Part shown: positions 399 through 20,375 of the stretch, piece by piece | How the letters are laid out: every line of letters starts with the position of its first letter | How positions within the stretch are numbered: the first letter of the stretch is position 1 | Assembly (NCBI GenBank): GCA_010093515.1 | Contig: MU001673.1 | Location: 220,642-253,333 of the forward strand | From: Lineolata rhizophorae | Taxonomy: Eukaryota; Ascomycota; Dothideomycetes; Lineolatales; Lineolataceae | Reading direction: 5' to 3' | DNA: 32,692 nt | Made by a program: the position numbers and the translations under genes | Notes under the pieces: model-generated | Told to the model about the DNA's origin: nothing | Databases searched by the model: none | The model's input: only the letters and a program-made list of their open reading frames with translations

Positions 399-1661
399 TC
401 ACAACTTCGGCTGCTCAATCCGGCGACCTGTCTCATCAAAGTGGATCTTCGTGCCAGTAATCAAGCTTTCCTGCAGCGCACAACCAATCTTGACCGCCTT
501 AACGGCGCCTTTAAGCTTGAAAGGTAGCTTGGTGCCGTTGAGGCAGCAATCGGTGAACTCATTCATCTCGGTTACGAAGGCGTACTCGAAGCGGCCGTAG
601 TAGTGTGGCGGGATCTCATGGCGCACGCCGTTAGGCTCCCACATGTCGACGAGCGAGTCGCGCGGGTTGGCGTTGACCGTCAGCTTGCCCTCGGTGCCGA
701 TGATCTCCGTCATGTCGTGCTGGCCCGAGGCCATCATGCGGCTCGAGTAGAAGTAGGCGATCTTGCCACCATAGAATTCAACCACGCCAACGCCGTTGTC
801 CACGTCCTTGTGCTTTTGCAGCTCCGGCTGAACGGCCGTGATGCCCACCGCCATCACCGACTTGACCACGCTGTCCTCGCCCAGGAACCACAGCGCCAGA
901 TCGATGTCGTGGATGTTGCAGTCGACGAAGATGCCACCCGAAAAAGCGGAGTACTGCACGAAGAAGCCAGTCGGGTCTAATTTATCGCATGTCTGCGAAC
1001 GGAAGACGGAGGGCCGACCGATACCGCCCGAGTCCGTCCGCTCCCATGCATCTCGGTACGAAGCATCAAAGCGCCGGGAGAAACCACACATGACTTTGAG
1101 GTGCGGTTTGGCCTTTGCTGCATCAAAGACGGATTGTGACTAAACCGCGCTTGTAAGTACCAAGGCATTTTCTCTATTTCAATCAAATTCCACATATGTA
1201 GAGTAGGAAGTAGCACACGTTACAGAGCTTTGCAAATCTACCCTTGGTGTAGGGAAAGCCATGTTGAAGTTAAGGATATAGAACAATAGCGACAAATGTA
1301 AAACTTGCATAAGATAATAGTCGGGATCACTCACAATTTCAACGCTCGTGCTTAATGGCTTTTCACACAACACGTGCTTATCGGCGGTAATGGCCTTGAT
1401 GGTCTGCTCCGCATGCACCGTCGTCACGGTAGCGACCACGACAGCGTCGAGACCCGCGTGCTTCAGCATCTCGTCGTAGTCCGTATAGAGCTTGACGCCC
1501 CATTGGGCGAGGTTCTGCTGGGCCCAGCTCATCTCGCCTTCGTCCGGAGTGAACACGGCCACAAGCTGAGCCCGCGGCGTGCGGCTCAGCACATTGGTCG
1601 CATGGCGCTTGCCCATGCGCCCAAGGCCGGCGACAGCCACTTGCAGGCGACGTGGAGCCAT
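399..1661 (-). CDS. Gfo/Idh/MocA oxidoreductase, inositol 2-dehydrogenase-like
   Basis: Two exons (minus strand): 1661-1335 and 1139-399. The 195-bp intron has donor GTGAGT and acceptor TTTAG in phase 0. The product is 355 aa, usual for the family. The start at 1661 places the Rossmann strand directly at the N-terminus; an in-frame ATG at 1703 would only add a tail. Residues 10-16 carry the dinucleotide glycine motif (AGLGRMG). Residues 100-102 are EKP, giving the conserved lysine K101. D182 and H186, in the pattern D-x3-H, match the catalytic Asp/His pair of bacterial IolG, so the active site looks intact. The C-terminal alpha/beta domain (about 125-345) is complete. The family oxidises or epimerises ring polyols such as myo-inositol with NAD(P). 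Near the myo-inositol oxygenase it may feed or interconvert inositol isomers, but substrate cannot be read from sequence. No targeting signal is evident, so it is probably cytosolic. Confidence 0.87.
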
Positions 1662-2726
1662 TGCGGAGTCCAGATGGCCGGGAAATATGGAGAGAAAGAG
1701 CAACGAGCCGTCCGAATAGGTATTTGAGGAAAGAGACGAGTTGGTCCAGGGAAAGACAGGCGATTAAGAAAGAGCTCCAACCTCACGATAACAAAAAAAG
1801 TTTTCCGGGGTGAAACATTCCCATCTAACGAACCGTGCGGACCCAACAAACTGGCAATTGAAAAGCATCCAGTCAGCAGAGCTAACAGCGCGATTGTCGT
1901 CACCGTCAATTGACGAGTTCTAGGTATGTCCCGTACACGGCGCGCTCGCTGACACTTGCAGAAGCTTGCGGCGAGATAGCTGGACCCCCGTGTGAACACA
2001 CGGCTTCCTCGCCCGCTGCTCCCGCCGTTTCCCGGCCCCACAAAAACAGAAAAATCCATCGTGTATCGCTGCGGCAACCTGCACGATAACAGCTCTAGCT
2101 CCCGGCGCCCGCTCGCTGCCGACCGAGCCGCCGTTGATGTTGGACCCCTGGCCGAGGGTGGTTGAGTCGACGATCAGAATCGCGCGCGTTTGCCCCGGAG
2201 AGTACGCGTTGAACGCGGTGCAGATAATCTTTGGCGCGCTGGCCCTTGTGGCTTCGCCGAAAATTGCCTCCTTGGGCGCCGCGGACGCGCCGTTGCAGCC
2301 GGCTGCGCGTGTGGTGGGGACCCGCAGGAAGCGCCCTGCGTCCTGCGCCCCGCCGCGGGGTACGGGGTGTTGTCATTGGTGTGTGAGGCTGCGGGTGTAG
2401 GTGAATCGTGTGCTTCAAGCGTTGGCTCGCACGAGAAAAAATTTCTCTGTTGTCGAGTTACTTACGAATGTTAGAGTTAAGCACTCACCAAGCCGATTGG
2501 CACAATATCTGGGGCAAATAGCAGCAGCTAGAAGTTGGCAAGAAGGCGTTGAGCAAACCTCACTTGGTAAGTTCTTCCCACATGGACGTCAAGGGTCGAA
2601 AAGGAGCCATACAGTAAAAAGTGTAGAAATTCCATGGTCGAACGTCTAAAAAACACATATTCTATATGCAAATCTAGTGGTCGTCAAAGCTGTTCTACTA
2701 ACCAACCGCGGAAACCTGGGGCTCTT
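1662..2726. promoter_or_regulatory. Intergenic region upstream of the Gfo/Idh/MocA gene, with a GC-rich block
   Basis: This 1.06-kb stretch holds the promoter of the leftward oxidoreductase gene and the 3' flank of the zinc dehydrogenase. A perfect 12-bp palindrome, CGTCAATTGACG, lies at 1904-1915, about 240 bp upstream of the start at 1661. Roughly 2095-2400 is clearly more GC-rich than its surroundings and open in several frames on both strands; it is listed separately. From 2400 to 2726 I see nothing recognisable. Confidence 0.5.
2095..2400 (-). other. GC-rich open block, possible unrecognised exon or gene remnant
   Basis: I do not recognise a gene here. The block is GC-rich in a more AT-rich setting and all three minus frames are open over much of it. 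One minus frame ends in S-stop at 2095. Another, reading through phrases such as FGEATRASAPKIICTAFNAY and VDSTTLGQGSNINGG, has the high third-position G/C seen in genuine exons of this window, but it begins after a stop without an ATG. A plus frame (about 2134-2400) is also open with a hydrophobic stretch, as expected of a mirror frame. It could be an exon of a spliced gene, a decayed gene copy, or GC-rich regulatory DNA. Confidence 0.25.
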
Positions 2727-4150
2727 TCACAATCTCGCCCGATCATCCTCCTCGACCTCCATGACCACTTTGAGCACCAACTTCCCACTCTCGTCCTTCG
2801 TCCGACCAGCCATGTCGAAGGCTTCTACCGCGGATTCCAGGCCACTGTACCGATGGGTGACCAATTTGGAAAAGTCCGGGTAATCCGGGCCAGACTTGGA
2901 CACCACTTCAATGCCCGTTGGGTATGTGTTGGCATATCTAAACACACCAACTAGGTCGACTTCACGCAGTGCCGCCGCTGAAATCGGGAGAGTTTGTACC
3001 GGCGTACCCATCCCGATAAGCATGATGCGTCCGCCATTCCGTGTTGCCTAGCGAAGAATGGTCAGCATTCAGCTGTTGAGTAGCATCATTTATTGCCTCT
3101 CCAACTTACGAAAATGGCAGCCTGTAAGCATGACGGTACGCCGGTGCACTCAAACACGGCATCAACTTCTCCAACCGGACCCTGGCCTCCGCTTTTATTC
3201 AGCTTCCCTATCCCCGCCGCCGTATCCCGCGCAATGTCCAGCATCTGTTCTGTTGTTTCTCCTCGCCTCAGTTGTACGGCGAATGGCACGTGTGCGAATC
3301 CGTTTTTTACAGCGAAATCGACACGGCCCGCATCGATATCTGCAATAATGACAGTACCGGCTCCAGACAGCTTTGCCATAGCTGCGACGAGTAGACCCAC
3401 AGCACCGGCTCCAAAGACGAGCACCGTAGCGTTCGGAGGTAGCTGCGCGCGACGTGATGCATGGATAGCGACTCCGAGCGGCTCCAGTAGGGCGCCGAGG
3501 TCGAGAGATACATTTTCCGGGAGTCTGTTCATAGCTCAAGTTAACAATCCAGACACAATGCCGCCAGAATAGTGAACTGTAACCTGAAAAACATGAACAA
3601 GTCGAAATCTATCTCTGTTCTAGGAACACTCACTTATGGCACCACGCCGCAGGATGGTTTATCCTCTCCTGCAGCGTTCCTTGAGCATGTGGAAATGCTT
3701 TTGCGGAGCTCCGAAACTGCATTCCTTTGCAGATATTGTAACGGCCTTCGCGGCATCGTTCGCATGCTCCGCACGGCAGACCAACTTCAAGGGCGACTTT
3801 ATCGCCGACCGCGAATCCATTGACACTAGAACCGACTGCAACAACAACACCGGCGGACTCATGTCCCAATGACATGGGCTCCCGCACTATGATATCCCCA
3901 TTTTTGTAATGTTTGTAGTAGTGCAAGTCACTACCGCAGAGTCCTGTAGCGCGTACCGCAACTTGAAGTTCATTTGGGAGCGGAGGATCGATGGACCTAT
4001 TCTCCTGCAAGCAATGTTAGAAACACCCGAAGAATGAAGTCTGTTGCGCTGAGGGTGCAGCGCTCAAGATGAACTAACGACCCGGAGATCCTTAGCGCCG
4101 TGTAGCACCGAGGCTTTAATTTGACGGCTGTAAGATTGAGAAAGAGCCAT
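2727..4150 (-). CDS. Zinc MDR dehydrogenase, sorbitol/L-idonate dehydrogenase-like
   Basis: Four exons (minus strand): 4150-4079, 4004-3634, 3524-3110 and 3047-2727, with introns of 74, 109 and 62 bp. The product is 392 aa. It is a medium-chain zinc alcohol dehydrogenase: catalytic zinc ligands C47, H72 and E73 (in GLCGSD and GHES), structural zinc cysteines C102, C105, C108 and C116, a conserved E162 in the LLEPLG motif, and the nucleotide motif GAGAVG at 186-191. D210, at the end of the second beta strand, favours NAD over NADP. The family oxidises secondary alcohols of polyols and sugar acids (sorbitol, xylitol, L-arabitol, L-idonate). It is divergent from a KduD/IdnO-like SDR, which recalls the bacterial IdnD/IdnO pair, so L-idonate 5-dehydrogenase is a plausible role. 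A general polyol dehydrogenase is the alternative. No targeting signal is seen. Confidence 0.9.
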
Positions 4151-4734
4151 TATGCTTGTTGTCGTATATGAACGGTATAAACGGAAAACTGGGAAAAGCT
4201 TTGGTGGTGGTTAAACGACACGCAGAAGAGCCAGAGCAGAGCTCGGAGAGAGTATTGCAATTGGAGGAAATGCTTCAGACCAGTCTCTCGGATAAGGTCC
4301 GAGATCGCCGTGCTCCAGGTCCCTAATAGTGCAATCCGAACGTGGAAATTCAGCCACCGACTCAAGGCGCCCCGGCGTTGGCGGCAAATCTGCTGTCCAA
4401 GAGAGAAGGCCCGGCCGGCCTACATGCTCTCCGCCGAGGATATCCTCCACACCGCTTAGAGATGTACCTAATCATGTGTAGCAGCTGCTTGCTGCTTATT
4501 TTTTTTTCCGAATGCAGATTCCCGTACAATCGCCATATCTGGGGCCGAGGGGCCGAGTGGTGCCGCCGAGGTCGGGGAAATTTGTTGGCTCCAGTTCTGC
4601 TTGTCTGCGTAACTACTTTTGACTTGCTCTTTATGTCTTTAGAATCCTGGTTTACGAATTTCATGGCAGCGTCACGACTATCCCAGGTCCAAAAGCATAT
4701 CGAGCCCAATTCAAACAGCAGTGGACCGTCGAAT
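4151..4734. promoter_or_regulatory. Divergent promoter between the zinc dehydrogenase and SDR genes
   Basis: This 584-bp region separates two gene starts that point away from each other, so it probably drives both. It contains a perfect 7-bp inverted repeat with a 5-bp spacer at 4286-4304, listed separately. In-frame ATGs at 4633 and 4663 on the plus strand could lengthen the SDR by 34 or 24 residues, but family alignment does not need them. Confidence 0.6.
4286..4304. promoter_or_regulatory. Palindrome TCTCGGA-N5-TCCGAGA, candidate Zn2Cys6 site
   Basis: The two 7-bp arms are perfectly complementary around the spacer TAAGG. The core reads CGG at 4289-4291 and CCG at 4299-4301, that is CGG-N7-CCG. 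Inverted CGG triplets with a fixed spacer are the usual target of dimeric fungal Zn2Cys6 regulators. Its place in a divergent promoter supports a regulatory role, but which protein binds it is unknown. Confidence 0.45.
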
Positions 4735-5712
4735 ATGCCGTCGGTGCAGGAATTGTTCTCTTTGGCGGGGCAGACCGCGATGGTGACTGGGGGGACGCGG
4801 GGGATCGGACAAGCGATGGCGGTAGCAATGGCGGAGGCTGGAGCCGACGTCTTGCTCGTGCAGGTGAGTCGAGCTCGCCAACTCCCTTCAGATCTCCTAC
4901 GAAAGTTCGAGCACATAGAAGTTCATAGTCCCACGAGTTTCCGTCGAAACGTTGAAGAAATCAAAAAGTATTCTCGTTGGAGAGATGCTGTCCTTGCTAA
5001 CACAGCCCCAATTCAGCGCGATACCTCAAATACCGAAACCAAGTCCTTAATCGAAGCCCTAAACCGCAAAGCCACGATCTACGCCGCCGACCTCTCCTCG
5101 CACGACTCCATCACCGCCCTCACACCCACCATTCTCGCCGACGGCCACCGCATTGACATCCTGCTCAATTGCGGCGGCATTCAACGCCGGCACCCAGCGC
5201 ACCAGTTCCCGTCGACCGACTGGGACGACGTGTTGCAGGTGAACCTCACGTCCGTCTTCACACTGTGCCGTGACGTGGGCGCGCACATGCTGTCGCGGCA
5301 GCCCGCGGCGCCGGGTTCCGCCGGCGGTGGCGGCGGCGGCAGCAGCAGCAGCCAACGCCGCGGCGCCATCATCAACGTAGCCTCGCTGCTCAGCTTCCAG
5401 GGCGGCATCACGGTGCCGGCGTACGCAGCCAGCAAGGGCGGCGTCGCGCAGCTGACCAAGGCGCTGAGCAACGAGTGGGCGGCCAAGGGCATCGCCGTCA
5501 ACGCAATCGCGCCAGGCTACATCGCGACGGAGATGAACACGGCGCTGTTGAACGACGAGGCTCGCGCGGCGAGCATCCTGGCGAGGATACCGGCTGGGCG
5601 TTGGGGCAGCCCGGAGGACTTCAAGGGCGCAGTAGTATTCCTGGCAAGTCGCGCGAGCGGATATGTGTCTGGCGAGATCTTAACGGTAGATGGAGGGTGG
5701 ATGGGGCGGTAG
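4735..5712 (+). CDS. Short-chain dehydrogenase, KduD/IdnO (5-keto-gluconate reductase)-like
   Basis: Two exons: 4735-4863 and 5017-5712; product 274 aa. The 153-bp intron (GTGAGT...TTCAG, branch TTGCTAACAC) is a multiple of three and has no in-frame stop, so a retained form would stay in frame. The start at 4735 gives the typical family N-terminus leading into the motif TGGTRGIG (18-25). The classical SDR residues are N119, S166, Y179 and K183 (YAASK). The usual NNAG motif appears as NCGG (94-97). The C-terminus ends in the usual VDGGW. The closest family I recognise is KduD/IdnO, which interconverts keto- and hydroxy-forms of gluconate-type acids. With the divergent zinc dehydrogenase, reduction of 5-keto-D-gluconate to D-gluconate is the likeliest role. 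A Gly/Ser-rich insertion at about 139-156 lies before the catalytic serine strand and is unusual; it coincides with GGC/AGC triplet repeats. Confidence 0.9.
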   Translation: MPSVQELFSLAGQTAMVTGGTRGIGQAMAVAMAEAGADVLLVQVSRARQLPSDLLRKFEHIEVHSPTSFRRNVEEIKKYSRWRDAVLANTAPIQRDTSNTETKSLIEALNRKATIYAADLSSHDSITALTPTILADGHRIDILLNCGGIQRRHPAHQFPSTDWDDVLQVNLTSVFTLCRDVGAHMLSRQPAAPGSAGGGGGGSSSSQRRGAIINVASLLSFQGGITVPAYAASKGGVAQLTKALSNEWAAKGIAVNAIAPGYIATEMNTALLNDEARAASILARIPAGRWGSPEDFKGAVVFLASRASGYVSGEILTVDGGWMGR

Positions 5713-6841
5713 TGTGCTATAGTGTTTGGCCTAGACTTGAATTGGGGCTACATAGATACAATGAAGCGAATAACAGTCTCAACAGCTCTGAGAAGACTTG
5801 CACTTGGTTACGAGGAGAATTCTAGGGACCCCTCTCCCCACCACAACCCGGCTTTACAATCGACTTTCACGGAGAATATTAAATGTTTCTAGCATTTTCA
5901 TCAAATATAGAAGCTCGATATAAGGAAAAACTTATCACACAATTGACGCTGGTACTAAGTCCAGAAGGCTCGTGATGTGTCTTCAATGCATCACAAGCGT
6001 CGAAGTCATTGTCAGTTTAGATTAGTCTTCCAAATAATTCCTTGGGACCATGTGACCATTTCTTAAGCAATTGCTCTCCAGTTCTCCGCAAGCTCAAGTC
6101 GTGCAAACCATGCGTAGCCGAAATGACCGCCTAAGTGGCCGTCGTGACGATGAGAGCTTCGGCACGTCCACGTGGGCATGCAGTAAACCTCAACGGTTCC
6201 CCGGTATCAAGCCATCTCTCCAAGGTATTGCTGCTCTTTCCGAAACTCCAGCATTAATCATATACGTTGTCCCAGTACCATAGTTCCTATGCAAATCGAC
6301 GGCCAAAAATAACCGAATGAGGCAACTCTCGCCTACACAGCCGAGCCCTATTGATGGGTCGGTATGTACCTAGCTCATCGGCTCCACATTAAGATTTTTT
6401 GCATTAGTTGGCTTATAACATTTAGAAGTTCCAGGCTCTGTCTTCAGACGTAATGTAGAACTAGCACGCTGGCGTGACTAAACTGCGAAATAGAATGAGG
6501 TGCTATTTGCACTGTACGTACAAACCAAAGTTTGGGCGTCTAGCAAAGTCAATTCACTTCTTTTGACTAATGAACCAAGAAATTTGGCTTTACTACACTA
6601 GATCGTAAAATCTATTCCCCTCACGGAGCCTGCTAGGAGCAAGCCAGCTAGCTTATAGCTAAGCTCTCTGTTTGTGTCGCGATGAACATGTTTCAATTTA
6701 TTCATCTTCTGGGGCATTGCCCCAGTCGCTATTTACTCAACAAATGCCATTAATCGTTACTGACATAGGAGCTTTTGACTATTTGGCAGAACAATACAAA
6801 TCGAGAAAGCACGCTAGTTTAGAATTTATGAAGATGCAAAT
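5713..6841. other. Convergent 3' intergenic region, no gene seen
   Basis: This 1.13-kb AT-rich stretch lies between the converging SDR and myo-inositol oxygenase genes. Open frames are short and unlike any family I know. A perfect GC hairpin lies at 6709-6725, listed separately. A weaker inverted repeat lies at 6650-6665 (AGCTTA, four bases, TAAGCT). The octamer CAATTGAC occurs at 5940-5947. Confidence 0.6.
6709..6725. terminator. Perfect hairpin downstream of the myo-inositol oxygenase gene
   Basis: CTGGGGC-ATT-GCCCCAG forms a 7-bp perfect stem with a 3-nt loop. It lies about 117 bp beyond the oxygenase stop codon and would probably be in its 3' UTR or just past it. It may affect 3'-end formation or transcript stability. 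Fungal polymerase II terminators are not normally hairpins, so the functional label is tentative. Confidence 0.3.
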
Positions 6842-7872
6842 TTACCACTTGATCACCTTGTTCGGGAAGAACTCGTCGATGAGCTCCAAGTAGTAGGGCT
6901 AGAGTCGTGTTAGTCCTCGTTTCTCATTTCAGGAAGGTCTCTTCGACATACCTTGAGGACTTCGACCTTGGGCATGTCATCGCTCTTGCTGTACAGATCG
7001 TACGGGTTGAAGGCGCGGACAGCCTCAAGCATCTTCTTGTCCTTCTCGTTCATCATCCACTCATAGGCACCCTCCTTGTGCCAGGGGTAAAACGAGTGGT
7101 AACGGATCATGGCCAGCGCCTCATCCGGCAGCGTCGACTGCTCCTTTACGACGTGATACAGGTACTCGTCGTGGCCCCAGGACAACATGACGTTGTCGAG
7201 ACCGCACCCGGGCGTGTATATTCCATACTTGGTGCCGTAAATCTCGTTGTCGTGGTCCGGATTCCCCTTGAAAGTATCGGGGTAGATGATGCGCTTGTCG
7301 AAGGCGCAGCCGACGGGAAACGTGTCGCCGACGACGTCCCATTGGCCCTGCGCACCATAGAAGAACAAGAGTTTGCCAAGGTCATGGATGAGACCCGTCA
7401 ACTGCATCCAGCGGGGCTTGCCGTCGCGGCGGATGGCCTCCGCGGCTTGGAGGAGGTGTTCGATCTGAGAGAGGGATGTGTCCGGGTCAGATTCATCGAT
7501 AAGGCTATTGAGCTTCTCGATGGCTTGCCACACGGACATTTCGGCGCGAGTGCGAGACTGGAAGTCGTTGCGCGCCTTGAGGTTGTAGGCGACCGTCTGA
7601 CGTTCATGCTGTTCCCGGTAGAAGTTCTTGACTCGGTCGCAGGCTTCCTCGTATTGCCGGAACTGCGTCTTGTCCTTCTCGGCATCGAATCGGGACTTTT
7701 CGTAGATGTCCCTCTCCTTATCGGTGGCAGTACCCTCTTTGACTTTCAGAGTGGCCTTGAGGACATTGACTTGGTCGATATCGTCAGACGTTGCTTCCAA
7801 GGCGAGACCATCCCTGTGGTCATTAAAGTTTTCGTTAACGTTAGGGGTCTCGACAAGCGCGCCGGGTGCCAT
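6842..7872 (-). CDS. MIOX: myo-Inositol oxygenase (EC 1.13.99.1)
   Basis: Two exons (minus strand): 7872-6952 and 6898-6842, separated by a 53-bp intron (GTATGT...CTCTAG, phase 0). The product is 325 aa. The enzyme is a di-iron oxygenase that cleaves the myo-inositol ring with O2 to give D-glucuronate. All six iron ligands known from the mammalian enzyme are recognisable: H139 (in IEHLLQAAEAIR), H163 and D164 (in GLIHDLGK), H234 (SWGHDEY), H259 (RYHSFYPWH) and D292 (NPYDLYSK). Hallmark segments such as VGDTFPVGC (181-189) and the C-terminal PYYLELIDEFFP are also present. The first 60 residues are less conserved and probably flexible. It is divergent from an aldo-keto reductase suited to reducing its product, which supports a shared pathway. 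No targeting signal is seen, so it is probably cytosolic. The long open frame on the opposite strand is a mirror of its codon bias. Confidence 0.97.
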
Positions 7873-9168
7873 GTTGAGACGATGGTAATAACAACAGGAC
7901 GTTTCCTACGAAATGAGGGAGTGTAGTATAAGGATAACTTCCGAGGATACAGAGAGAACGAGGAGTGAAGAGTGAAGACTAGTCGAAAGGGGCCAGTGAG
8001 AGTGGTATTTCAATGCTCTGGGGGCAGGCCTAACGCCGCAGAAGAAAAATGGGGATGATTGAAAAGGAAATTCGGGGCACATCACGGAGGCGAGTTCGTA
8101 GAGTGAGCTTCGGCGAGTTCTTCGGACAGTAGAGGCCGGCAACTCCAGGACCTTCGGTCTGCTTGATTGGCAATACGGTCCATCGGCCGCGATACGCAAT
8201 TCTAATAGGTTATTATGGAATTCAGGGATCCACAGACCGCGGACTGCCCGACTATTGTCCCTTCGCTACATGCGATGTGCAATAGGCAGGCAGTAGCTAC
8301 GAAGTACTTTGCTCCATCCCCGCAGCTGTCTTCCCCAATTGCGACCTATCATCAAGGGTTGGTGAGCCCCAGTGGCGAGCTTCTACACGAAAGGCGTGAA
8401 GGGTGCAGGCCGGTTATGACGTAGTGGAGGGTCGGCTGAGCCGTGCCGCTCGAACCTCGCTCGGCTTTACCTTGAAAACATCGAAGGAATACTGTCGCTG
8501 ACGATACTGCGCGAGGGGAAGAATGGATGGGTGGCGCGGAGGTTGGTTCGACGGGAGTCCGGTGCCCCTAGGCCCGCGCTTGGCCCAGGTGGAAATCGGC
8601 GGCGACAGGGGTGGGTCCCGAATCCGAAGAAGGCATTCCGCCGCGACGGCAAGAGGCGCCGCCTCCTTCCCTTCCTCGTCGAGCTCCCAGTTGCCCGACG
8701 ACATGCGCGCCAAGAACCGTCGGCCCATCCAGCCATTGTGAGTCGCGTCCTGAGCGCAACGGCTCTAAGCCACTGTGGCTTCCCCGAGCGCAATCACCAG
8801 GGCGGCGAAACTTCACGTGAGCCAAGTCGTCTTCGCGGTCGGCGGAGGCTCAGCCGTCAGGCAAAATTTCCCCTGTCGTGCCGGAGCGTCAGCGATGGTT
8901 TCTCCGTTCAGCCCACCCTTGGCCAATGTCACGGCCCGCGGGGCCCTATCGTCGTGCGTCAGTGGACGCGGGGCCCAGCCAAGCGCGTCCTGTCCCGGTC
9001 AAGTGGCCGGCAAAAAAAGTTCCGTTGACACAATTGACCCGCGGAATAGACGCGTCCAAACTAGCGTTGGACGCGATACATAACGTTCCCTAGCCCCAGA
9101 TGAATCCTCAGCTATGTAGGTTCATTCTAGCGCGCACTCCACGCCACGTCTTGGATCCCGAGCCCACA
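7873..9168. promoter_or_regulatory. Divergent promoter between the oxygenase and aldo-keto reductase genes
   Basis: This 1.3-kb region separates two divergent pathway genes. The part from about 8400 to 9000 is GC-rich and open in several frames on both strands, but no frame shows domains or splice structure I can support. A perfect 9-bp inverted repeat at 9051-9075 lies 94 bp upstream of the reductase start at 9169. The octamer CAATTGAC occurs at 9031-9038. A compact CGGCTGAGCCG palindrome lies near 8433. Confidence 0.55.
9051..9075. promoter_or_regulatory. Inverted repeat CGCGTCCAA-N7-TTGGACGCG upstream of the aldo-keto reductase
   Basis: Two perfectly complementary 9-bp arms flank the 7-bp spacer ACTAGCG. 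The site is 94 bp upstream of the preferred reductase start and only 25 bp from an alternative in-frame ATG at 9100. The symmetry suggests binding of a dimeric regulator. If it works in DNA, transcription probably starts downstream of it, which favours the later start codon. Confidence 0.5.
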
Positions 9169-10266
9169 ATGGACACCCGGTTTACGCTTAACAACGGCAC
9201 GACAATCCCCGCTTTGGGGCTGGGGACGTGGCAGTCTTCTCCTGGTGAAGTCAAGAATGCGGTCGCCCATGCTCTGAAAGTGGGCTACAAGCACATTGAT
9301 TGTGCGTTTTGCTATCAGAACGAGGATGAGGTCGGCGAAGGGCTCAAGGAGGCCTTTGCTGCTGGGGTGAAGCGCGAGGATATCTTTATCACAACCAAAT
9401 TGTGGTGCACCTTCCACTCCAGGGTTGAGGAGAATCTCAACATGAGCTTAAAGAGCCTGGGACTTGACTACGTCGACCTTTACCTCATGCATTGGCCGGT
9501 GCCGATGAACCCGCACGGTATAGCTCGCCCTTTGATGGCGACAATCCGCGATCAAATTCAATTGACAACAGCGCAGGCAACCACCCGCTCTTCCCAAAGC
9601 TTCCGGACGGCTCGCGAGATCTCGTCAAGGACTGGAATTACGTTGACACGTATAAACAGATGGAGAAACTGTTGAGTACGGGTAAAGTTAAGGCGATTGG
9701 CGTTGCCAATCATAGCAGACCGTACCTCGAAAACCTCGTGTCTAAAGTGGATGTCGTTCCAGCCGTCAATCAGATTGAGAACCACCCATACCTGCCGCAG
9801 GAGGAGGTCGTTGACTTCTGTCATTCAAAAGGGATCCACGTCACGGCGTACAGTCCCTTCGGCAGCACTGGTGGGCCGCTGATGCAAGAAGAGGGTGTGC
9901 AAAATATTGCGCAAAAGCACGCGGTATCTGCGGGGACAGTGCTTCTGAGCTACAACGGTCAGTTACCTACCAAATGCCTGTTAAAAATCACTACTAACAC
10001 TAAGTACCTAGTTGCGCGAGGCAACTCTGTTCTCCCCAAGTCTGTGACACCGTCAAGAATCGAGGAGAACAAGAACATAATCAAGCTTGACCAGTCGGAA
10101 GTAGACGAGTTGAACGAGATTCACAAGAAGAAGGGAATAACGAGATACGTGTACCCGCCGTTTGGTGTAAGCCCCAATACCTTCGCCTTTTTAGAACCTA
10201 CTCGCTAAGTCATTGCAGGTCAACTTGGGGTTCCCAGACAGGCAAGAAGGCGTCTCGATGTTGTGA
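9169..10266 (+). CDS. Aldo-keto reductase, candidate D-glucuronate reductase
   Basis: Four exons: 9169-9517, 9577-9957, 10012-10166 and 10219-10266. Introns are 59, 54 and 52 bp; the second has a textbook CTACTAACAC branch site. The product is 310 aa, typical for the family. The catalytic tetrad is D44, Y49, K77 and H108 (in [13 protein letters not shown] and LMHWP). The NADP-binding segment [12 protein letters not shown] is present near the C-terminus. It resembles the fungal glycerol/uronate reductase group. Next to the myo-inositol oxygenase, NADPH-dependent reduction of D-glucuronate to L-gulonate is the best guess; other aldoses are possible. An in-frame ATG at 9100 would add 23 residues rich in Arg and Leu and free of acidic residues until near its end, which could be a mitochondrial presequence. 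The start at 9169 matches family proteins better. The last 16-codon exon (VNLGFPDRQ...) completes the conserved C-terminus. Confidence 0.93.
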
Positions 10267-12654
10267 AGCTCTGGGGTTAATTGCACCGGAACCGTGTCGG
10301 ATACTTGGGCCATCCCCTGATACTGCGCGCTAAGTAGAGCAGGATGACTTGTTTTGAATAGAAGGTAACGGTAAATCTGTTGGCTGCTAGTGGTCGCCGA
10401 TGTCGCGGCAAGAGTGGAAAGTTGAATATCACGACATGCGTGAATCAAGCCGACCTGGCGGCATCACTAAACAAAGTGCTGTGGTGCTTGCGCGCTGCCA
10501 GGACCGGTCGCTGAATTTAGCCGAGGGCGGGCGCCATAATCAGGCTAAGAGGCCGAACCGCGAGAACGGGTCCGAGACAGCATCCGCGACGCAAGGACGG
10601 CGCATGAACAATCCAAATTCGCGTCGGGAGAGCCTCAAATCGGTTCTCTCAGCCACCTTCTCGCACATGTTCGAGGCAAGGGGGTGGCGTTCCGACGTTC
10701 GATTCTTGGAGGCAAGCTCCCGGAAGCGGAAATGAGCGAGCGTTTGGATGCGAATTCGCGAACCGTGGTTTGAGCGACCACGCGAACGGTGCTCGAAACC
10801 AGTCATGTGGGCCCGTTCGCAGGTGGCGGTGTGGCTCGCTTTTCGCGTCCTGTGACGGCAGATTGACACCTGTCTCGTCTCATTATTTCCGCGGATTTAT
10901 TTCTCAAGCCTACGGGTTCCGTGGAAAGCCAAGCTCATCGTGCGCCACCCGGATGGCTTTCAAGACTTCGGCTGGAAGCATCGGTGAACCATGCTGACGG
11001 TGCGATGTCCGATTCTTCATTTCCACATTCTCCCGCTTCCAGAAACATGGCGCTTCTAGCGAACCACAGATGCCGAGCGACGGTCGAAGATTCGACTCTT
11101 AATGCCGCTTTTGGAAATATGGCACTGGCCGGCCTATTCAAGTGGCGGCATGTCGTACACTAATATACGTATATAGATGGACCGTAGCATAGCAAGATGC
11201 CCATCCATATTTCCCCGAGCAAGCGGGCCTTTCTAACCCATGGGTATGCAAGAGGATCCGTAGAGGAGCATAGCTCACTCAGTCCAGGCGTACCGGATAA
11301 TCTCCACTCGACGAATCCTACATTCCAAGCCTACGCTTTCTATGTACATAAAACGCAGTGTTGGTAGTGTTCGATGTTAGTTTGAAGTTGCAGGTCGAAG
11401 CGGGTATTGCATATGAACTATAGGTTGTCGTCATCCATGTCCTATAAATAGGACAATCTATAGCATTCTGGAAGCCCGGCGCTCAATAATGCAAAACAGA
11501 GGCACGGATCTCTGCATTTCGGTTCAGGTCATTCCGGGCACCATGGCGACGTAGCGTGACAGAGATTGGACTCCACGTTCGACGATTCATTTCAGCGTCC
11601 AAGCCATCCTGAACTTGCTGAACCAAACTTTGGTTCCACGTTCAACGATTCATTTCAATATCCCCATCATCCTGGACATTGTGAACCAAACTTTGCCTCC
11701 ACGTTCAATTTTTCATTTCCGCATTCGGAAGCGACGGAATCAAGTCCGTGGAAAACGTAGATATTACCTTATGTAGCAAGCACTCCGTATTCGAGATGGT
11801 ATCTCGCGGGCCACATCCTGGGCGGTCTTGTTCCCTAGCCGGATTTATTCGGGATAGCACCGGAAGGTTGGATAGAAAGCCCTTCTAGTCCGAACTCCAC
11901 CTGCAATGTTCTGGCTATTAGACCGTGAGTGAAGTACCCGTCGGTCATAACTTTTGCGCTTAGGACTTCCCCTAGCTGCTCCTGGACGCCTCAGCCACCT
12001 TATTCTCGCTGCCTCTCGAAGGAAGTACCCCGCGTTCTTGGGCGCGATGTCCACATCAATGGGAGCCATGAAATCTTCCCAAGACGACTCTTCAGTCTTT
12101 TCAGACGCACCATCTCTAATCTCGCGCCAACAGCGAACAGCACAACCTGACGGCTTTACGTCCGTTTATTTGTACGAGAACTTTGAAAAGAAAAGGTAGG
12201 GAGTGAGAGAGAAGGCAGCATCAGAAACACTATCGTGAATATTCTAAGTTCGGCTTGTAGTTGGGTCTCTCTTTCGCTGATGCAGGGTTACTACCTAGAC
12301 TTAGAAGAAGTCGGGGATTGCCCCATGCACGGTCCATGCCGCGTCGGTAAAGGGCGTTAGGCACATGATTCCACTAAGCAACCTTTTGTACAGTTTTTGA
12401 GATCCTTTCTAAAACTAGGCGATAGCCATGCCGTCAAGCTAAACTTATGATATAATGTCAATCCATGGTAGTAAGAAAGTAGGCGGCGGAAACAGTGCGG
12501 GAACAAGACGGTAAGACTCACGTCACTTTAGCGCGCTCGGGTCCGAGGTGGCTGGACGCACGTGATGCGCATCCGGGACGAGGCGAGCTCGCCAACAATT
12601 TTGCTCTACAAGAGCATCCCTATTCTACCGCGAACCCCGCAGCAAGCTTCAATT
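10267..12654. other. Gene-poor region with a tandem repeat, no supported gene apart from it
   Basis: This 2.4-kb stretch has only short open frames without recognisable domains. It holds a 63-bp tandem repeat (11572 onward, listed separately). A small inverted repeat CGTGGT-N7-ACCACG lies at 10764-10782. A peptide-like segment near 11010-11040 (SSFPHSPAS in one frame) faintly resembles the end of the tandem repeat (FSFPHSEAT), so the area may hold remnants of an old coding sequence. Confidence 0.5.
11572..11735 (+). repeat. 63-bp tandem repeat, about 2.6 copies, open in one frame
   Basis: Units begin at 11572, 11635 and 11698, exactly 63 bp apart; each starts TCCACGTTC and the last is partial. 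The period equals 21 codons. The plus frame is open from about 11560 to 11760 and reads STF(D/N)DSFQ...EPNF in each copy, ending in a TAG at 11758. There is no ATG in frame after the preceding stop at 11557. A candidate splice acceptor (ACAG) at 11559-11562 could make it a terminal exon, but I found no convincing upstream exon. It may be a decayed repeat-protein gene. Confidence 0.6.
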
Positions 12655-13145
12655 ATGGCTAGCTCACTTCTACGACAGATATTCGCCCGGTTCCAGGCTC
12701 GGGAACCCACACCTGTCTTTGATCTCGAAAACAATCCTTGGAAAGCCAAGAAGAAATGGCCGCCGGACTTTTCGAAACTATCTCACAAGCAACAATTTGT
12801 TTTAGAGAAGCGATTCCGGAGGCGCGCAAAGATCGTATACTCCTGCCCGAGATACCAAAGATTTATGACGTTCTTCCAATGGGGAACCATCATCTGTATG
12901 CATGGAACCTCCAAAGCGCAGGCACCGTACTAACGACAGCCAGCTGCCACGGCGTACATGGTTCTATTCATGGACTGGAAAGACAACGATCGTGCCTTTA
13001 ACTCGGTAAGTTCTGGAGTCACTAGGCTCTGTACGCCTTGAGGCTAACATCATTCCAGATCCGAAGCTGGTATAGAAACCTCTCGAAATCCATCTGGACC
13101 GCAGACGAAAGGAAGACGGGACAGAAAGAAGACCACACACGATGA
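12655..13145 (+). CDS. Small conserved single-pass membrane protein, function unknown
   Basis: Three exons: 12655-12895, 12944-13005 and 13059-13145; product 129 aa. The introns are 48 bp (GTATGC...CCAG, branch GTACTAACG) and 53 bp (GTAAGT...TCCAG, branch GGCTAACAT), and both keep frame. The protein has a short N-terminal helix with a Phe/Arg pattern, a conserved-looking NPWKAKKKWPPDFSKLS segment (about 28-44), a very basic stretch FVLEKRFRRRAK (about 48-59), then one membrane span (FFQWGTIISATAYMVLFMDW, about 73-92) followed by a charged tail. The combination resembles small fungal proteins of mitochondrial or other internal membranes that I remember only as hypothetical; I cannot name a function. 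An ATG at 12565 would extend it by 30 residues but is less likely. Confidence 0.7.
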
Positions 13146-14635: not shown

Positions 14636-17392
14636 ATGGCCACCGTAACTGGACGGGCGTCTTCTTCGCGCATAGCTTCGGCGAATTTGACCACGCCTCG
14701 CACTCGAAGTGGCTGCCAGGTAAGACATCACTTCGCCTTTCCTACCTTGTAGGTTCAGTTTCTTTATTAACGAGAAGTGCTTTGCAGGGCTGTCGTGCAC
14801 GGTGAGTGATTGGTTTCAGTATTCAATTGATTTCAAGGTTACTTATTTCCCGTGGTATCCTAGCCATCTGAAGTGTAAGATCTCCGGACACGTCCCTAGA
14901 TTCGAGGTCTATTCCATTAACGCAGGGTCTTCAGGCGATGAACTACGACCGGCGTGTTCTCGATGTGTCAAAAGTGGAATCAAGGTGGCTATTGCTTTGA
15001 GTGGAAGTTGAGCGCCTAAATACTAATAATAAAACAGTGCATCAAGAACTCCAACATTCGTTTCCGACATGGAAACAATCCAAAGTTAGTTTTTTCGACC
15101 TTCCTATGATACGCAAGGGACCGGATTCTTTATGCTTGTCTTAGAGAGGTCCAACATATCAATCTTCCAGCCCTCGGCGGGAAGCTGACAGAAACACGAG
15201 TGCGACCAGGTCGGGGAACGCCTCTTTAGGAAAAGGAGAGTTTGACTTTTCCAAAAATCAAGTCTGGTGTCGAACTGCTCGCAGCTTGAGTTTTATCGAT
15301 GAAACTAGGGGTTTTACCGCACCGCATGATCAGGACTCGGATCCAGAAACAACTAGTGCTGCCAGGGCATCCTCTCTCGAGAAGGGGCAGATGCCAACTG
15401 ATCGTTCAATGCTACTTCTAAATACTTCAGCGGCAGCCTCGACTCTTTCTAGTCCAGTCGATGAATCGATGAATTCAAATTTCAACGAACTTGGAGGTCA
15501 CATCACTTCCGCAAAACGTAGAAAATTCGACTTTCCGCCTTCCCTGGACAATTCTCTTCATCGATCGCCACAGCATAGAGCATGGAACATGCATCACTCT
15601 TTGGGGAGGGAAGTGGGTAATATGCAAGCGGAGATGTCTCCGACATCGTCTGGGCAAGAAATCGTGCTTGGAAATATTCCCAATGTTCATCCAGGCGTCG
15701 AGAGCTCCCCATCGCAGCAACTGAGCTTTCAAGTCCTTTCTAATGGCTCAGAAACCTCGCCACATGTTTATTTCAACACGCCTGCGTGGCCCTTACAGGA
15801 CCAACAAGAGGCTAGGCTTTTGCGGCATTTCATCGACAACGTCGCTCCTTTTTTCGACCTTTGCGATCCACGGCGTCACTTCCAGATTACGATTCCGCAG
15901 CGAACAACCACTTGCCCAACGCTACTCAACGCCATACTCGCGGCTTCTGCCTCCCATCTCTGCCAGTTTGCTCAATTCGATTCTCTCGTTGCAAATTTTT
16001 ATGTTCAAGAATGTCTTCAACAACTATTACCCATGATGGGCGGCGTAACAGGAATGATGGATGAGAATTCATTTGCTGCTATCGTCATCCTGCGGTTCGT
16101 GGAAGAACTAAATGGTGAGTGGATTGTCTTCCCGACACATGTGAATTACTTCATGTGTAACTGTCGTCCTCCGAAGCGAAAGTCGCTCTACACATGGATG
16201 GTTCCCTCTTCTCATTTTGCTGAAACTGCCAGTTTCGTCTGGTATTTTAGTAATAAAAAGTTCTGCTGTTCGCAACTTTGAGCTCAAGACACGATCAACC
16301 TAGTGTTCTGTCATAGAGATATAAACGCGCAACCTTTGTTCACGCTTGCCTTCTGGCGTTGCGCACTAATTCCGTTGCAGCTCCGATGTCCTCTAGTCGT
16401 CATGAGTCGCCTAGGAGCCGTCTCCTTGATACTCACATTTTAGCCAACGCGCCAACAAATTGTATTGAGGTCAGCAGCGTACAAAGGGCTTCATACTGGG
16501 TTTGCATGCAACAAGACATCTACATGTCTTTTGTAGCTCAACAATCTACACTAGCGCCGCACGAATTTTGCACCGCCGACCGGTCCGTCGCTCAAGCTGA
16601 TGATTGGACCTGGACGAAGCGCATCATGCTTCACTGTGCTGACCTTCTGCTGTACTGCTTTGGCGAAGGCGAGCACAGCGTCGGCACGTACGACGCTCTG
16701 GTCCGGCAATGTGCCGACTGGTCGACGTTCAAGCCAGCCTCGTTCCATCCCATCTTCTTCAAGGAGCCTAGCATGCTCGGCGTCGACATATTTCCGGAGG
16801 TCTGGTTGCTAAATGATGCTGCCGCTGCAGGTATACAGCACTATCATCTCGGGATGATCCTCCTGACTGCACACAATCCAAAAGCGCCACTTGTAGGTCC
16901 GGATCAGAGGCAAGTGTTGAAATTGTTAGATGTAAGTCCACATCAGAGCGTCTGACAAACGTCCTATTTGAAAAAGCCTCCCCTGACACCGCTGCCTAAG
17001 GACGAAATCAAGGGCCATGTGCGAATCATTTGTGGCATTGCTAAGTCAAACGGCACGGCTTCATCCCCTTCCAACTGGCGGTAAGTCGAGTATCTGCCTA
17101 TTCCGTAAGCCTATTCTAATTCATATTGCTTATATCTCAGGACTGCCACGATGGCCATCTCCATGGCTGGTGATCGGTTTAGGGGTCGCCATGAACAGAT
17201 TGCTCTAATGAACGTGCTGGACACAACAGAGAAGAAGCAGATTTGGCCGACTAACACAATGTAAGTTTTGTTTCGAACCCCGCACCTATCCTTTCTGTAT
17301 TTGCTCTTCCCCTGTTTGAAATCCATCATTGACTCGTCGGATATCGAAGAAAGGCACACATCAAAGAAGCATGGGGTTGGAGGAGCGTATAA
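14636..17392 (+). CDS. Zn2Cys6 fungal transcription factor
   Basis: Ten exons: 14636-14719, 14788-14801, 14864-14874, 14935-14984, 15038-15084, 15171-16114, 16381-16931, 17001-17080, 17141-17260 and 17350-17392; product 647 aa. The spliced N-terminus gives a complete binuclear zinc cluster, C27-x2-C30-x6-C37-x6-C44-x2-C47-x6-C54. It is followed by a basic linker and the segment FDFSKNQVWCRTARSLSFIDE, common in fungal regulators. The middle (about 215-620) is an alpha-helical regulatory domain, and the end (AHIKEAWGW) matches the typical terminus of the Fungal_trans_2-type group; that family name is an inference. The zinc cluster is spread over five exons, including 14-nt and 11-nt microexons. 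The third intron (14875-14934) is 60 bp, in frame and stop-free, so retention would insert 20 residues between C37 and C44. The fourth intron has a weak donor (GTGGCT) but a strong TACTAAT branch site. Targets are unknown. Confidence 0.87.
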
Positions 17393-18051: not shown

Positions 18052-19210
18052 TCACAGCTTACTAGGCTTCCAAACCGGCTTCCTCTTCTCCTTGAAAGCC
18101 GCCAGCCCCTCCCTCGTATTCTCTGCCTCCATCAATGCCGCATGATACCTCTCCAAGACGCTCTCCGTCGCCGCCTCGACGTTGCCGCGCTCCCACGCCT
18201 CCCTCAGCGCCGCCCTCGTCACCACGGCCGCATCCGGCGATATGGCCGCGATGCCATCGGCCAACCGCAGCGCCTCGCGCACCACGGCCTCGGTGCCCGG
18301 CCGGTCCGCGACGCGGTTTACGAGGCGCGCCGACAGGGCCTCGGCGGCCGAGAGGACGCGCCCGGCGAGCGCGATTTCGGATGCGAGCGGGAGGCCGACG
18401 GTGCGGACGAGGCGCGCGGGGCCGCCGGCCGCGGCGTAGATGCCGCGCAGGGCTTCCGGCAGGCCGAAGGTTGCGGTGGGTGAGGCTACGATCATGTCGC
18501 TGGGAAAGCGGAAAGTAGGAGGGGAAGGAGCCGGAAGTTAGTGAACGAACGATACGTTCCACGGCAGGAGAGGAGGCGGGACGGGAACGGGATCGGCGGG
18601 GAGGTGTTCGCCGGCTTTTGGTAGGTGGGGGCTCTCGCTGGACGAGGACGGGTAGAGATTCAAATAATGCAAGGACACAATGGACAGGTCGTGTAGCAAG
18701 AAGCACGGGGACGAAGATGAACGTAGGTATCTCGGAAAAGTCAAGCGGTCCATCAAGAGACTCCAAAGAAAGCCCAACCCGAACCTACCAATTCAACACG
18801 ATCTCAAACCCACCCCCCAACGCCAGCCCATTCACCGCCGCAATAACCGGCTTCTTCCCCTTCCTCCTGCTCAACCCCGCAAACCCTCCCGGCGGTAACC
18901 TCACGGAGCCCGCCTCGGCGGGCGGCCGCGCCGGCCCCGCCCGCAGCCGCTCGACCTCGATCAGATCTTGCCCAGCGCAGAAGGCCTTGTCGCCGGCGCC
19001 CGTCACGACGGCGACGCGCAGGGTGGGCTCGCGGTCCAGCCAGTCGAAGACGGCGTCGAGCTCCCAGTGCGCGGCGAAGGTGAGCGCGTTGTGGGCGCGC
19101 GGGCGGTTGATGGTGACGAGGAGGACGTGCGGCGCGGGGTAGGAGAGGAGGCAGGTGGTCGGGGAGACGGGCGGAGGAGGCGTCGTGGTGGGAGGTGGTG
19201 GAGATGACAT
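18052..19210 (-). CDS. Peroxisomal enoyl-CoA hydratase/isomerase family protein
   Basis: Two exons (minus strand): 19210-18789 and 18499-18052, with a 289-bp intron (donor GTAGGT, acceptor TTTCCCAG); product 289 aa. The crotonase fold is clear: an N-terminal NRPRAHNAL motif, the oxyanion-hole segment GDKAFCAGQDL, and GLALGGGFEIVLNCDMIVAS spanning the splice site. Both glutamates used by true hydratases appear to be present, one in GGGFE and one in FGLPEALRGI, which favours hydratase activity over isomerase-only members. The protein ends in Ser-Lys-Leu, a canonical PTS1 signal, placing it in peroxisomes, likely in fatty-acid or related acyl-CoA beta-oxidation. The first 18 residues are Pro/Thr-rich and poorly conserved. 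The intron is longer than others in the window, and its 5' part is GC-rich and open on the other strand. Confidence 0.92.
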
Positions 19211-20375
19211 GGTGGGCGGTGGCGATTTGGGCTTGCGGATCCGGGTGAGTACGGGATAGGTACGGCCTGATGGATTCTCGAGACGTAAAGACAGGCCTTT
19301 TCCAATTGTTGTGCTAGGAAACCGCAAACGCAGTAAGTCAAGGGAGGTCAAAACAGAAAGAAAACAGACGTAAGCGCGACGGAAGAGCTGGGTGCAGGCC
19401 CCTGGCCAAACAACCTCGCAACCTCGACGCGGCACTGGGCCCTCGAACGGCGGAGCGGCGGCAATCCCTGTCTCGGCGCCTCCAACTACCCCCGCATTTT
19501 GCGCTTCCCCAGGCTCCGGTCCCGTCGGCCGCGCCCGTCCCTCGCGACGCTCCCGCCCGCCCGGACGCCGCATTTGCGCGAAAAAGCAACTGCAGCGGTC
19601 CGAAACGTCACCTGCTCCTCCGCCCACGAAGCTGCCTTTCCAACCTTCCTGACAGCCGCTGCATGCATGATGCGTCAGCAGAGCTCACACCATCCAGGCC
19701 GTCTGCTCTTATCACGCGATTGCCGGAGGCGTCGTCCAAGGTCGAGAAAACCGATAACAGGGGAAGATTGGTCGAATAGCCTCATCCGCAGGCAATATGA
19801 ACATGTTGGCGGACTGCGAACGACGAAGCCTTGTTATTCGTACATTCGCCACTACCATATACAAGGTTAGGTACATGTTTGGCTATGGATACATAGATAC
19901 GCAGTAGTATAGTGTCGAAAGCGAGGAAAACGGTATTAGTTTCGTACCACTGCTTCCACGTAGCAGGTACGCGCGTGCTGACGGCGTGTCGTCTCTGTAC
20001 CTCGCAAGAACACGTCGAGGAGAAACAAAAAGGAACGCGCCAACTAGTCCGGCGGTCATCATGTAGGCGCAAGACAGGACAAAAAAAGAGAATTGATGAA
20101 CTGGTATCAAACTCCATAGCCGCCTAAGAGGAAGTAAACCCTTTTTTTTTTTGAGACCCCTCTTCCCTTTCGTTCCAGCCCAACTAGCCATTCCACCCGT
20201 AGTTCATAGGCATAGCTACCCACATTCAGACCAGAGCCGGATAAGAAATACAAAGAAAGAAAAACATTCGCCCGCAATCCAAATATCTCCGGCCTATCCA
20301 AAAAATAAAACCTGCAAAAGGAACGCGTCATGTACTGCCCCGACAAGGCTAACATGGCCAAAAAAAAAAAAAAAA
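19211..20375. promoter_or_regulatory. Intergenic region: hydratase promoter and receptor 3' flank
   Basis: This 1.17-kb stretch holds the upstream region of the leftward hydratase gene and the 3' flank of the receptor gene. I see no gene in it. A run of fifteen A (20361-20375) abuts the receptor stop codon, and a run of ten T lies near 20143-20152; both are simple homopolymers. The GC-rich part near 19390-19640 is open in several frames without domains. Confidence 0.5.

What the first reader, a model, noticed from the sequence alone, without database searches (positions are those of the whole stretch)
399..10266. Candidate myo-inositol-to-gluconate catabolic gene cluster
Five adjacent enzyme genes, with no unrelated gene recognised between them, include a clear myo-inositol oxygenase, an aldo-keto reductase suited to its product, a zinc MDR enzyme and an SDR resembling the bacterial IdnD/IdnO pair, and an IolG-like dehydrogenase. 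Together they cover most of an oxidoreductive path myo-inositol, D-glucuronate, L-gulonate, (2-keto-L-gulonate, L-idonate), 5-keto-D-gluconate, D-gluconate. Fungal D-glucuronate catabolism through L-idonate and 5-keto-gluconate is known; having it physically joined to the oxygenase would be notable. The step assignments are inferred from family and neighbourhood.
Basis: partly seen in the sequence, partly recalled or inferred. Interest (0 to 1): 0.75.

Follow-up and report, generated by a model that had tools for sequence, protein, structure and literature searches.

The report
Fungal inositol-to-gluconate enzyme gene cluster
In an unnamed fungus, the enzyme that opens the inositol ring sits beside four oxidoreductase genes that could carry its product towards gluconate, with a likely regulator gene nearby, so the cluster suggests a testable route for using inositol and a candidate for an enzyme still missing from the known fungal pathway.

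Summary
The five genes are real, intact and at the stated coordinates: a Gfo/Idh/MocA dehydrogenase (-), zinc MDR (-), SDR (+), the genome's only MIOX match (-) and an AKR (+). MDR/SDR and MIOX/AKR are divergent pairs. Families, catalytic residues and inferred cofactors fit the D-glucuronate reductase, GluE and GluF steps of the Aspergillus niger pathway; the SDR shares short terminal stretches with GluF as read from published primers. No 2-keto-L-gulonate reductase lies in the cluster, and linkage in other fungi could not be tested. New: (1) the IolG-like gene belongs to a fungal clade on the scyllo-type side of inositol dehydrogenases; the nearest bacterial relative found adjoins iolG, and a Cryptococcus inositol dehydrogenase is co-induced with MIOX (published array). 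I favour an inositol-isomer dehydrogenase feeding MIOX; the unidentified fungal L-gulonate 2-dehydrogenase is the bolder alternative. (2) A Zn2Cys6 factor at 14636-16952 has homologues beside the second genomic copy of that dehydrogenase and beside its homologue in a second fungus, so it probably belongs to the cluster. A D-mannonate branch is unlikely (no UxuA match; gluconokinase match present). Substrates and regulation are inferred, not shown.

The parts
399..1661 (-). Gfo/Idh/MocA dehydrogenase (relative of scyllo-type inositol dehydrogenases), 2 exons, 355 aa
   Evidence: catalytic K101, D182, H186
2727..4150 (-). Zinc MDR dehydrogenase, candidate L-idonate 5-dehydrogenase (GluE-like), 4 exons, 392 aa
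   Evidence: zinc-ligand residues and D210 at the end of beta-2 (roles recalled)
4735..5712 (+). [quoted passage not shown] alternative ATG at 4633
   Evidence: termini compared with GluF primers
6842..7872 (-). myo-inositol oxygenase, 2 exons, 325 aa, only PF05153 match in the genome
   Evidence: H139 H163 D164 H234 H259 D292 align with the recalled six iron ligands
9169..10266 (+). Aldo-keto reductase, candidate D-glucuronate reductase, 4 exons, 310 aa
   Evidence: D44 Y49 K77 H108, K253 and R259 (roles recalled)
14636..16952 (+). Zn2Cys6 / Fungal_trans_2 transcription factor, likely cluster regulator (partial model, exon junctions after 14984 not settled)
4151..4734 (.). Region between the divergent MDR and SDR genes
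   Evidence: gene models
7873..9168 (.). Region between the divergent MIOX and AKR genes
   Evidence: gene models
2507..2515 (+). 9-mer ATCTGGGGC upstream of MocA
   Evidence: weak
4537..4545 (+). 9-mer ATCTGGGGC between MDR and SDR
   Evidence: weak
9093..9101 (-). 9-mer ATCTGGGGC between MIOX and AKR
   Evidence: weak

Best explanation
A catabolic gene cluster for inositols. MocA interconverts other inositols (for example scyllo-inositol) and myo-inositol through an inosose; MIOX cleaves myo-inositol to D-glucuronate; the AKR reduces it with NADPH to L-gulonate; enzymes encoded elsewhere (an unidentified L-gulonate 2-dehydrogenase and a 2-hydroxyacid-dehydrogenase-family 2-keto-L-gulonate reductase) give L-idonate; the MDR oxidises that with NAD to 5-keto-D-gluconate; the SDR reduces it with NADPH to D-gluconate, which an unlinked gluconokinase phosphorylates. 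A Zn2Cys6 factor whose first exon lies 4.4 kb beyond the AKR probably switches the genes on. Shown: gene families, intact catalytic residues, gene arrangement, TF-MocA association at three loci, a gluconokinase match, no UxuA match. Inferred: every substrate, the cofactors, the regulation and the flux.
For: Families and catalytic residues. The genome's only MIOX match lies in the cluster, as does its only strong KduD/GluF-like SDR: the next SDR place scores 71 bits against 506 for the window gene. The SDR holds LFSL near its N-terminus and ends GWMGR, as A. niger GluF does by its primers (PMC5814732, translated by eye). The MDR's best NCBIfam model is L-idonate 5-dehydrogenase. Inferred cofactors agree with those published for the D-glucuronate reductase, GluE and GluF. 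MocA: its nearest solved sequences are 4mkx/4n54 (8.5e-57, 1.3e-56); 4N54 is the L. casei scyllo-inositol dehydrogenase (PMC5969746, PMC9603128, passages). In an 11-row tree three fungal MocAs join a Sphaerotilus dehydrogenase (99/94) on the scyllo-type side (100/100), and that Sphaerotilus gene directly follows iolG. In Cryptococcus, inositol raised Mio1 32.63-fold and Idh1, described as inositol 2-dehydrogenase, 5.45-fold on an array (PMC3617100). TF: one search found three other places in the genome (a lower bound), two of them within about 7 kb of the MocA paralogue; in L019 a homologous TF lies about 1 kb from MocA. Gluconokinase match over cut-off; no UxuA match while 5 of 14 control genomes rang.
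Against: No PF02826 (GluC/GluD family) match in the cluster; the nearest on the contig is about 90 kb beyond the window. By PDB sequence the MDR is nearer ketose reductase 1e3j (4.5e-74) and sorbitol dehydrogenase than L-idonate 5-dehydrogenase 6dkh (5.1e-38). AKR is nearest aldose reductase and D-arabinose dehydrogenase. The best NCBIfam models of all four proteins given to one search are below cut-off (MIOX was not given). The motif V marker residue of PMC9603128 is Gln in 3 of 3 fungal MocAs, neither Tyr nor His/Arg/Lys; but it also varies among the scyllo-type rows (Tyr, Asn, Tyr; His in Sphaerotilus), so it decides little. Cryptococcus Idh1 was not compared by sequence, and qPCR there confirmed MIO1 and MIO2, not Idh1. 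N. crassa has predicted orthologues of most pathway genes yet did not grow on D-glucuronate (PMC13158570). No transporter was recognised, but none was searched for by family and 5.5 kb on the left is N. Synteny in other fungi was not tested; L019 shows only TF and MocA and its contig ends 2.8 kb upstream of MocA.
Confidence: 0.55

Rival explanations
1. [quoted passage not shown]
For: The step had no gene in the GluF paper (PMC5814732) nor in a 2026 paper (PMC13158570). MocA is the one cluster gene without a place between D-glucuronate and D-gluconate. Motif V carries Gln in 3 of 3 fungal members, weak because the position varies. The family oxidises secondary alcohols (recalled).
Against: Its clade lies among inositol dehydrogenases and the nearest bacterial relative found adjoins iolG; Cryptococcus Idh1 is described as an inositol 2-dehydrogenase. 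The parts of the A. niger papers that I read name no such gene on D-glucuronate, though their full expression lists were not seen.
Confidence: 0.2
2. MDR is an L-gulonate 5-dehydrogenase and SDR a D-fructuronate reductase, so the route runs to D-mannonate and needs neither 2-keto-L-gulonate nor GluC.
For: It would make the cluster self-contained; MDR also matches RspB 4ilk at 3.7e-30 (the L-gulonate activity of that group is recalled).
Against: No mannonate dehydratase UxuA match in the genome; SDR termini match GluF; gluconokinase match present.
Confidence: 0.06
3. The genes are a mixed polyol or sugar neighbourhood: MDR a sorbitol or galactitol dehydrogenase, AKR a general aldose or glycerol reductase, with MIOX linked for other reasons.
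For: PDB nearest neighbours of MDR and AKR; these families are broad; an MDR paralogue 56-57% identical by segment exists at C14.
Against: The single MIOX and the single strong KduD/GluF-like SDR lie together, in two divergent pairs, with a TF whose homologues accompany MocA elsewhere.
Confidence: 0.19

Closest known systems
Aspergillus niger D-glucuronate pathway (GaaA, GluC/GluD, GluE, GluF)
   Same: GluE-type alcohol dehydrogenase and GluF-type SDR families with agreeing inferred cofactors; a divergent gene pair is used
   Different: In A. niger the clustered pair is gluD-gluE with a 455 bp shared promoter; here a GluE-like and a GluF-like gene are paired and lie beside MIOX, an AKR and an inositol-dehydrogenase-like gene, with no GluC or GluD in the cluster
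Cryptococcus neoformans inositol catabolism (MIO1-3, Idh1)
   Same: MIOX entry, and a gene described as inositol 2-dehydrogenase induced together with it by inositol
   Different: Three MIO genes; the passages read describe no physical cluster and assign no genes to the later steps
Scyllo-type inositol dehydrogenases (L. casei 4N54, Sphaerotilus second enzyme)
   Same: Same side of the tree as MocA; catalytic Lys/Asp/His kept
   Different: 32-42% identity; the Sphaerotilus gene lies beside iolG and no MIOX is annotated in the 25 kb shown
E. coli L-idonate pathway (IdnD, IdnO, IdnK)
   Same: [quoted passage not shown] gene names recalled)
   Different: MDR scores 194 against 469 for the L-idonate 5-dehydrogenase model and SDR 206 against 408 for a gluconate 5-dehydrogenase model; the SDR is nearer KduD

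Membership tests
myo-inositol oxygenase (PF05153) | Full-length family match | tested here: met
   430.9 bits against cut-off 25, model 1-249 of 249
myo-inositol oxygenase (PF05153) | Di-iron ligands (positions recalled from the mouse enzyme) | tested here: met
   Six of six aligned positions kept
Inositol dehydrogenase (Gfo/Idh/MocA) | Catalytic Lys/Asp/His triad (PMC9603128) | tested here: met
   K101, D182, H186
Inositol dehydrogenase (Gfo/Idh/MocA) | IolG equivalog model TIGR04380 | tested here: not met
   262 bits against cut-off 355: not filed as IolG
Inositol dehydrogenase (Gfo/Idh/MocA) | Motif V marker (Tyr in group i; mostly His/Arg/Lys in group ii) | tested here: inconclusive
   Gln in 3 of 3 fungal members; Tyr, Asn and Tyr in the three scyllo-type rows, His in Sphaerotilus
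Inositol dehydrogenase (Gfo/Idh/MocA) | Activity on an inositol | not testable with these tools
   Needs purified enzyme
Fungal D-glucuronate pathway | GluF-like SDR | tested here: inconclusive
Fungal D-glucuronate pathway | GluE-like NAD-dependent MDR | tested here: inconclusive
   Family and Asp at beta-2 agree; the C-terminus differs from that read by eye from a GluE primer; a paralogue exists at C14
Fungal D-glucuronate pathway | GluC or GluD in the cluster | tested here: not met
   No PF02826 match row inside C4:220642-253333; 14 rows elsewhere
Fungal D-glucuronate pathway | Gluconokinase in the genome | tested here: met
   TIGR01313, 150.9 bits over cut-off 113.75, with one TAG inside the matched stretch, possibly an intron
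E. coli Idn system | IdnD and IdnO model cut-offs | tested here: not met
   NF007375 194 against 469; NF005983 206 against 408 (that NF005983 stands for IdnO is recalled)
Bacterial iol pathway after inosose | Downstream Iol enzymes present | not tested
   Not searched in the genome

The most novel reading that the evidence does not exclude
The MocA gene encodes the fungal L-gulonate 2-dehydrogenase that the A. niger work could not find, having evolved from a scyllo-type inositol dehydrogenase inside an inositol cluster and perhaps keeping both activities; part of the route may even be peroxisomal (MocA ends PKL, as some peroxisomal amoebozoan inositol dehydrogenases do, and MDR ends ARL).
Probability: 0.15. 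Interest if true: 0.75.

Novelty: new variant of a known kind. Interest (0 to 1): 0.5.

Why it matters
It would tie fungal inositol breakdown, known genetically in Cryptococcus, to the D-glucuronate-to-gluconate route worked out in A. niger, as one regulated unit. It also names concrete candidates (MocA, the AKR, the Zn2Cys6 factor) for parts without a gene: L-gulonate oxidation, the second D-glucuronate reductase and a regulator.

Tried and rejected
Viral contigs: MIOX matched no pattern; SDR gave 3 stretches, none confirmed; the MocA alignment gave 39 loci at 23-37% identity, none of them studied. MIOX in the MAG that holds L019: no match, and the control rang nowhere, so this says little. 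Bacterial MIOX neighbourhoods on plasmids: 3 records matched. In the two annotated ones no inositol dehydrogenase, MDR or aldo-keto reductase is named near MIOX; an NAD(P)-dependent oxidoreductase lies about 7 kb off in one; the third record carries no annotation and I did not annotate it. Promoters: the 9-mer ATCTGGGGC occurs once in each of three intergenic regions and nowhere else in the window, but simulation (order-1 Markov, 200 runs) expects 0.085 shared 9-mers, up to 2 in a run, so it is weak; it contains CTGGGG, which fits the CreA consensus SYGGRG (recalled); no exact copy in L006, L007, L019 or L023. CGG-type spacings showed nothing clear. I tried to tell GluC/GluD among the PF02826 loci from primer-encoded ends and could not. 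The organism was not placed by marker genes. No structure was predicted. L002 and L005 were fetched and not read beyond their N runs. Papers: in searches I noticed no fungal MIOX gene cluster in the listings, of which 7 showed 20 of 55, 45 showed 20 of 29 and 84 showed 15 of 151; most subscription papers are not held, so absence is not shown. Papers seen: PMC5306355 parts 1-3 of 5; PMC5814732 parts 1-2 of 3; PMC4870679 passages and section 16; PMC13158570 passages and section 20; PMC3617100 passages and section 13; passages only of PMC6353982, PMC6540932, PMC9602106, PMC5969746, PMC9603128, PMC8629394, PMC8561382 and PMC12076931.
Full report
What is there. Five intact genes occupy 399-10266: MocA(-), MDR(-), SDR(+), MIOX(-), AKR(+). 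The MDR and SDR start codons lie 585 bp apart, back to back, and those of MIOX and AKR 1297 bp apart. MIOX is the only PF05153 match in the genome. I recognised no other gene among the five by eye. The bases immediately left (5.5 kb) and right (1.6 kb) of the window read N, so the cluster could continue unseen to the left. Beyond that gap lie a SurE-like gene and, further off, frames that look like SHY1 and other housekeeping genes (by eye). No family search for transporters was run.

Enzymes. MIOX matches the whole Pfam model (430.9 bits) and keeps the positions aligned with the six recalled iron ligands of the mouse enzyme. AKR keeps D44, Y49, K77, H108 and the NADPH-type K253 and R259 (roles recalled); its nearest solved relatives are aldose reductase and a D-arabinose dehydrogenase. 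MDR keeps catalytic and structural zinc ligands and has D210 at the end of beta-2, which suggests NAD; its best NCBIfam model is L-idonate 5-dehydrogenase, below cut-off, while by PDB sequence it is nearer ketose reductase and sorbitol dehydrogenase. PMC5306355 notes that GluE itself has only low homology to the other characterised L-idonate 5-dehydrogenases. SDR is nearest KduD; A. niger GluF had been annotated as 2-deoxy-D-gluconate 3-dehydrogenase (PMC5814732), and its primers, translated by eye, give LFSL near the N-terminus and GWMGR at the C-terminus, both present in the window SDR. Published cofactors (D-glucuronate reductase NADPH, GluE NAD, GluF NADPH) agree with those inferred here.

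The known pathway and its gap. In A. [quoted passage not shown] a second D-glucuronate reductase and the enzyme from L-gulonate to 2-keto-L-gulonate are unknown, and a 2026 paper repeats that the latter gene is not identified (PMC13158570). That paper also reports that N. crassa, with predicted orthologues of all the genes except gurA (gluC), did not grow on D-glucuronate, a caution for reading growth from gene content. gluD and gluE share a 455 bp promoter region in A. niger; here a GluE-like and a GluF-like gene are divergent neighbours. The cluster has no 2-hydroxyacid dehydrogenase for the GluC/GluD step; one search lists 14 match rows elsewhere, the nearest at C4:341901. A gluconokinase match is present. 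A bypass through D-fructuronate and D-mannonate is unlikely because UxuA has no match while 5 of 14 control genomes rang.

MocA. Its nearest solved sequences are 4mkx/4n54 and 3cea (8.5e-57 to 1.1e-49), against 1.5e-27 for the inositol 2-dehydrogenase 4hkt and 2.4e-22 for the 3nt2 group. PMC5969746 and PMC9603128 identify 4N54 as the L. casei scyllo-inositol dehydrogenase and 3NT2 as B. subtilis myo-IDH (passages). A scan of the prokaryote genome contigs with a two-member fungal alignment gave 160 pattern matches and 2 confirmed loci: L020, two dehydrogenases side by side in a Saprospiraceae MAG, and L019, a contig filed under a deltaproteobacterium whose MocA is interrupted by introns, hence a second fungus by my reading. 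Its MocA is 70% identical to the window's, the paralogue at C41 63%. Among plasmids, 966 records matched and the best row, in Sphaerotilus, is 42% identical and directly follows iolG, with TIM-barrel proteins and regulators around. In a tree of 11 sequences the three fungal MocAs join the Sphaerotilus gene (99/94) within the scyllo-type side (100/100), apart from the IolG type; the tree is midpoint-rooted, several rows are PDB fragments, and the Sphaerotilus row has an unusual letter make-up. In Cryptococcus, inositol raised Mio1 32.63-fold and Idh1, described as inositol 2-dehydrogenase, 5.45-fold on an array; qPCR confirmed MIO1 and MIO2 (PMC3617100). I did not have the Idh1 sequence to compare. 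The published motif V marker is Gln in all three fungal proteins; characterised groups have Tyr or mostly His/Arg/Lys, but in my alignment the scyllo-type rows themselves vary (Tyr, Asn, Tyr), so this is inconclusive. The position that holds Asp or Glu in NAD enzymes is T38 here and Ser in 4mkx, which leaves the cofactor open. I weigh inositol-isomer dehydrogenase above L-gulonate 2-dehydrogenase.

Regulator. A gene with a Zn2Cys6 domain (PF00172, 36.3 bits; spliced from four short exons, last Cys added by me) and a Fungal_trans_2 match in its first long frame (37.6 bits; the second frame has no Pfam match) lies at 14636-16952, its first exon 4.4 kb beyond the AKR. Searching the genome with it gives four places at E 0.001 or better, a lower bound: itself; C41:116731-117745 (42-48% identity); C41:121687-122424 (25-38%); C14:437407-438157 (29-37%). 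Both C41 places lie within about 7 kb of the MocA paralogue at C41:123665. In L019 a homologous TF (41% over 113 and 31% over 213 residues) lies about 1 kb upstream of MocA. So TF and MocA sit together at three loci in two fungi. The two C41 TFs may be duplicates of each other, so they count as one event. The C41 locus is otherwise different: P450-like and diflavin-reductase-like frames (by eye) and, in C41:88800-148799, no match to the window MIOX, MDR, SDR or AKR at 1e-5.

Verdict. A real, non-random catabolic cluster; mechanism inferred from families; a new arrangement of largely known parts. The main uncertainties are the substrates of MocA and MDR and the lack of any synteny test in other fungi.

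Noticed in passing
402-410, 2730-2738, 10255-10263: C-termini: MocA ends PKL (its C41 paralogue PRL, the L019 homologue AQM), MDR ends ARL, AKR ends SML. ARL fits the strict PTS1 motif and PKL the relaxed one quoted in PMC8629394, where peroxisomal inositol dehydrogenases of amoebozoans end PKL, SKL or AKL; SML fits neither. Expected by chance per protein: 0.2% strict, 4% relaxed. MIOX and SDR have no such ends.
   Followed up: partly
G000:C41:116731-125000 (L007, L023): Second MocA locus: two TF homologues, a P450-like frame and a diflavin-reductase-like frame around the 63% identical MocA paralogue; looks like a different pathway.
   Followed up: partly
L019 (NYXK01000143.1:36513-48639): A public MAG labelled Deltaproteobacteria holds a contig with intron-containing, fungus-like genes (MocA, a Fungal_trans_2-type factor, an EMP70-like frame by eye): probably a mis-binned fungal contig.
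   Followed up: partly
12532-12933: Small open frame without a Pfam match between the AKR and the regulator.
   Followed up: no
18052-32256: Beyond the regulator: an enoyl-CoA hydratase, a Gpa2-type glucose-receptor-like GPCR, a PA-domain RING protein and a 509-aa frame without a Pfam match; no evident link to inositol.
   Followed up: no
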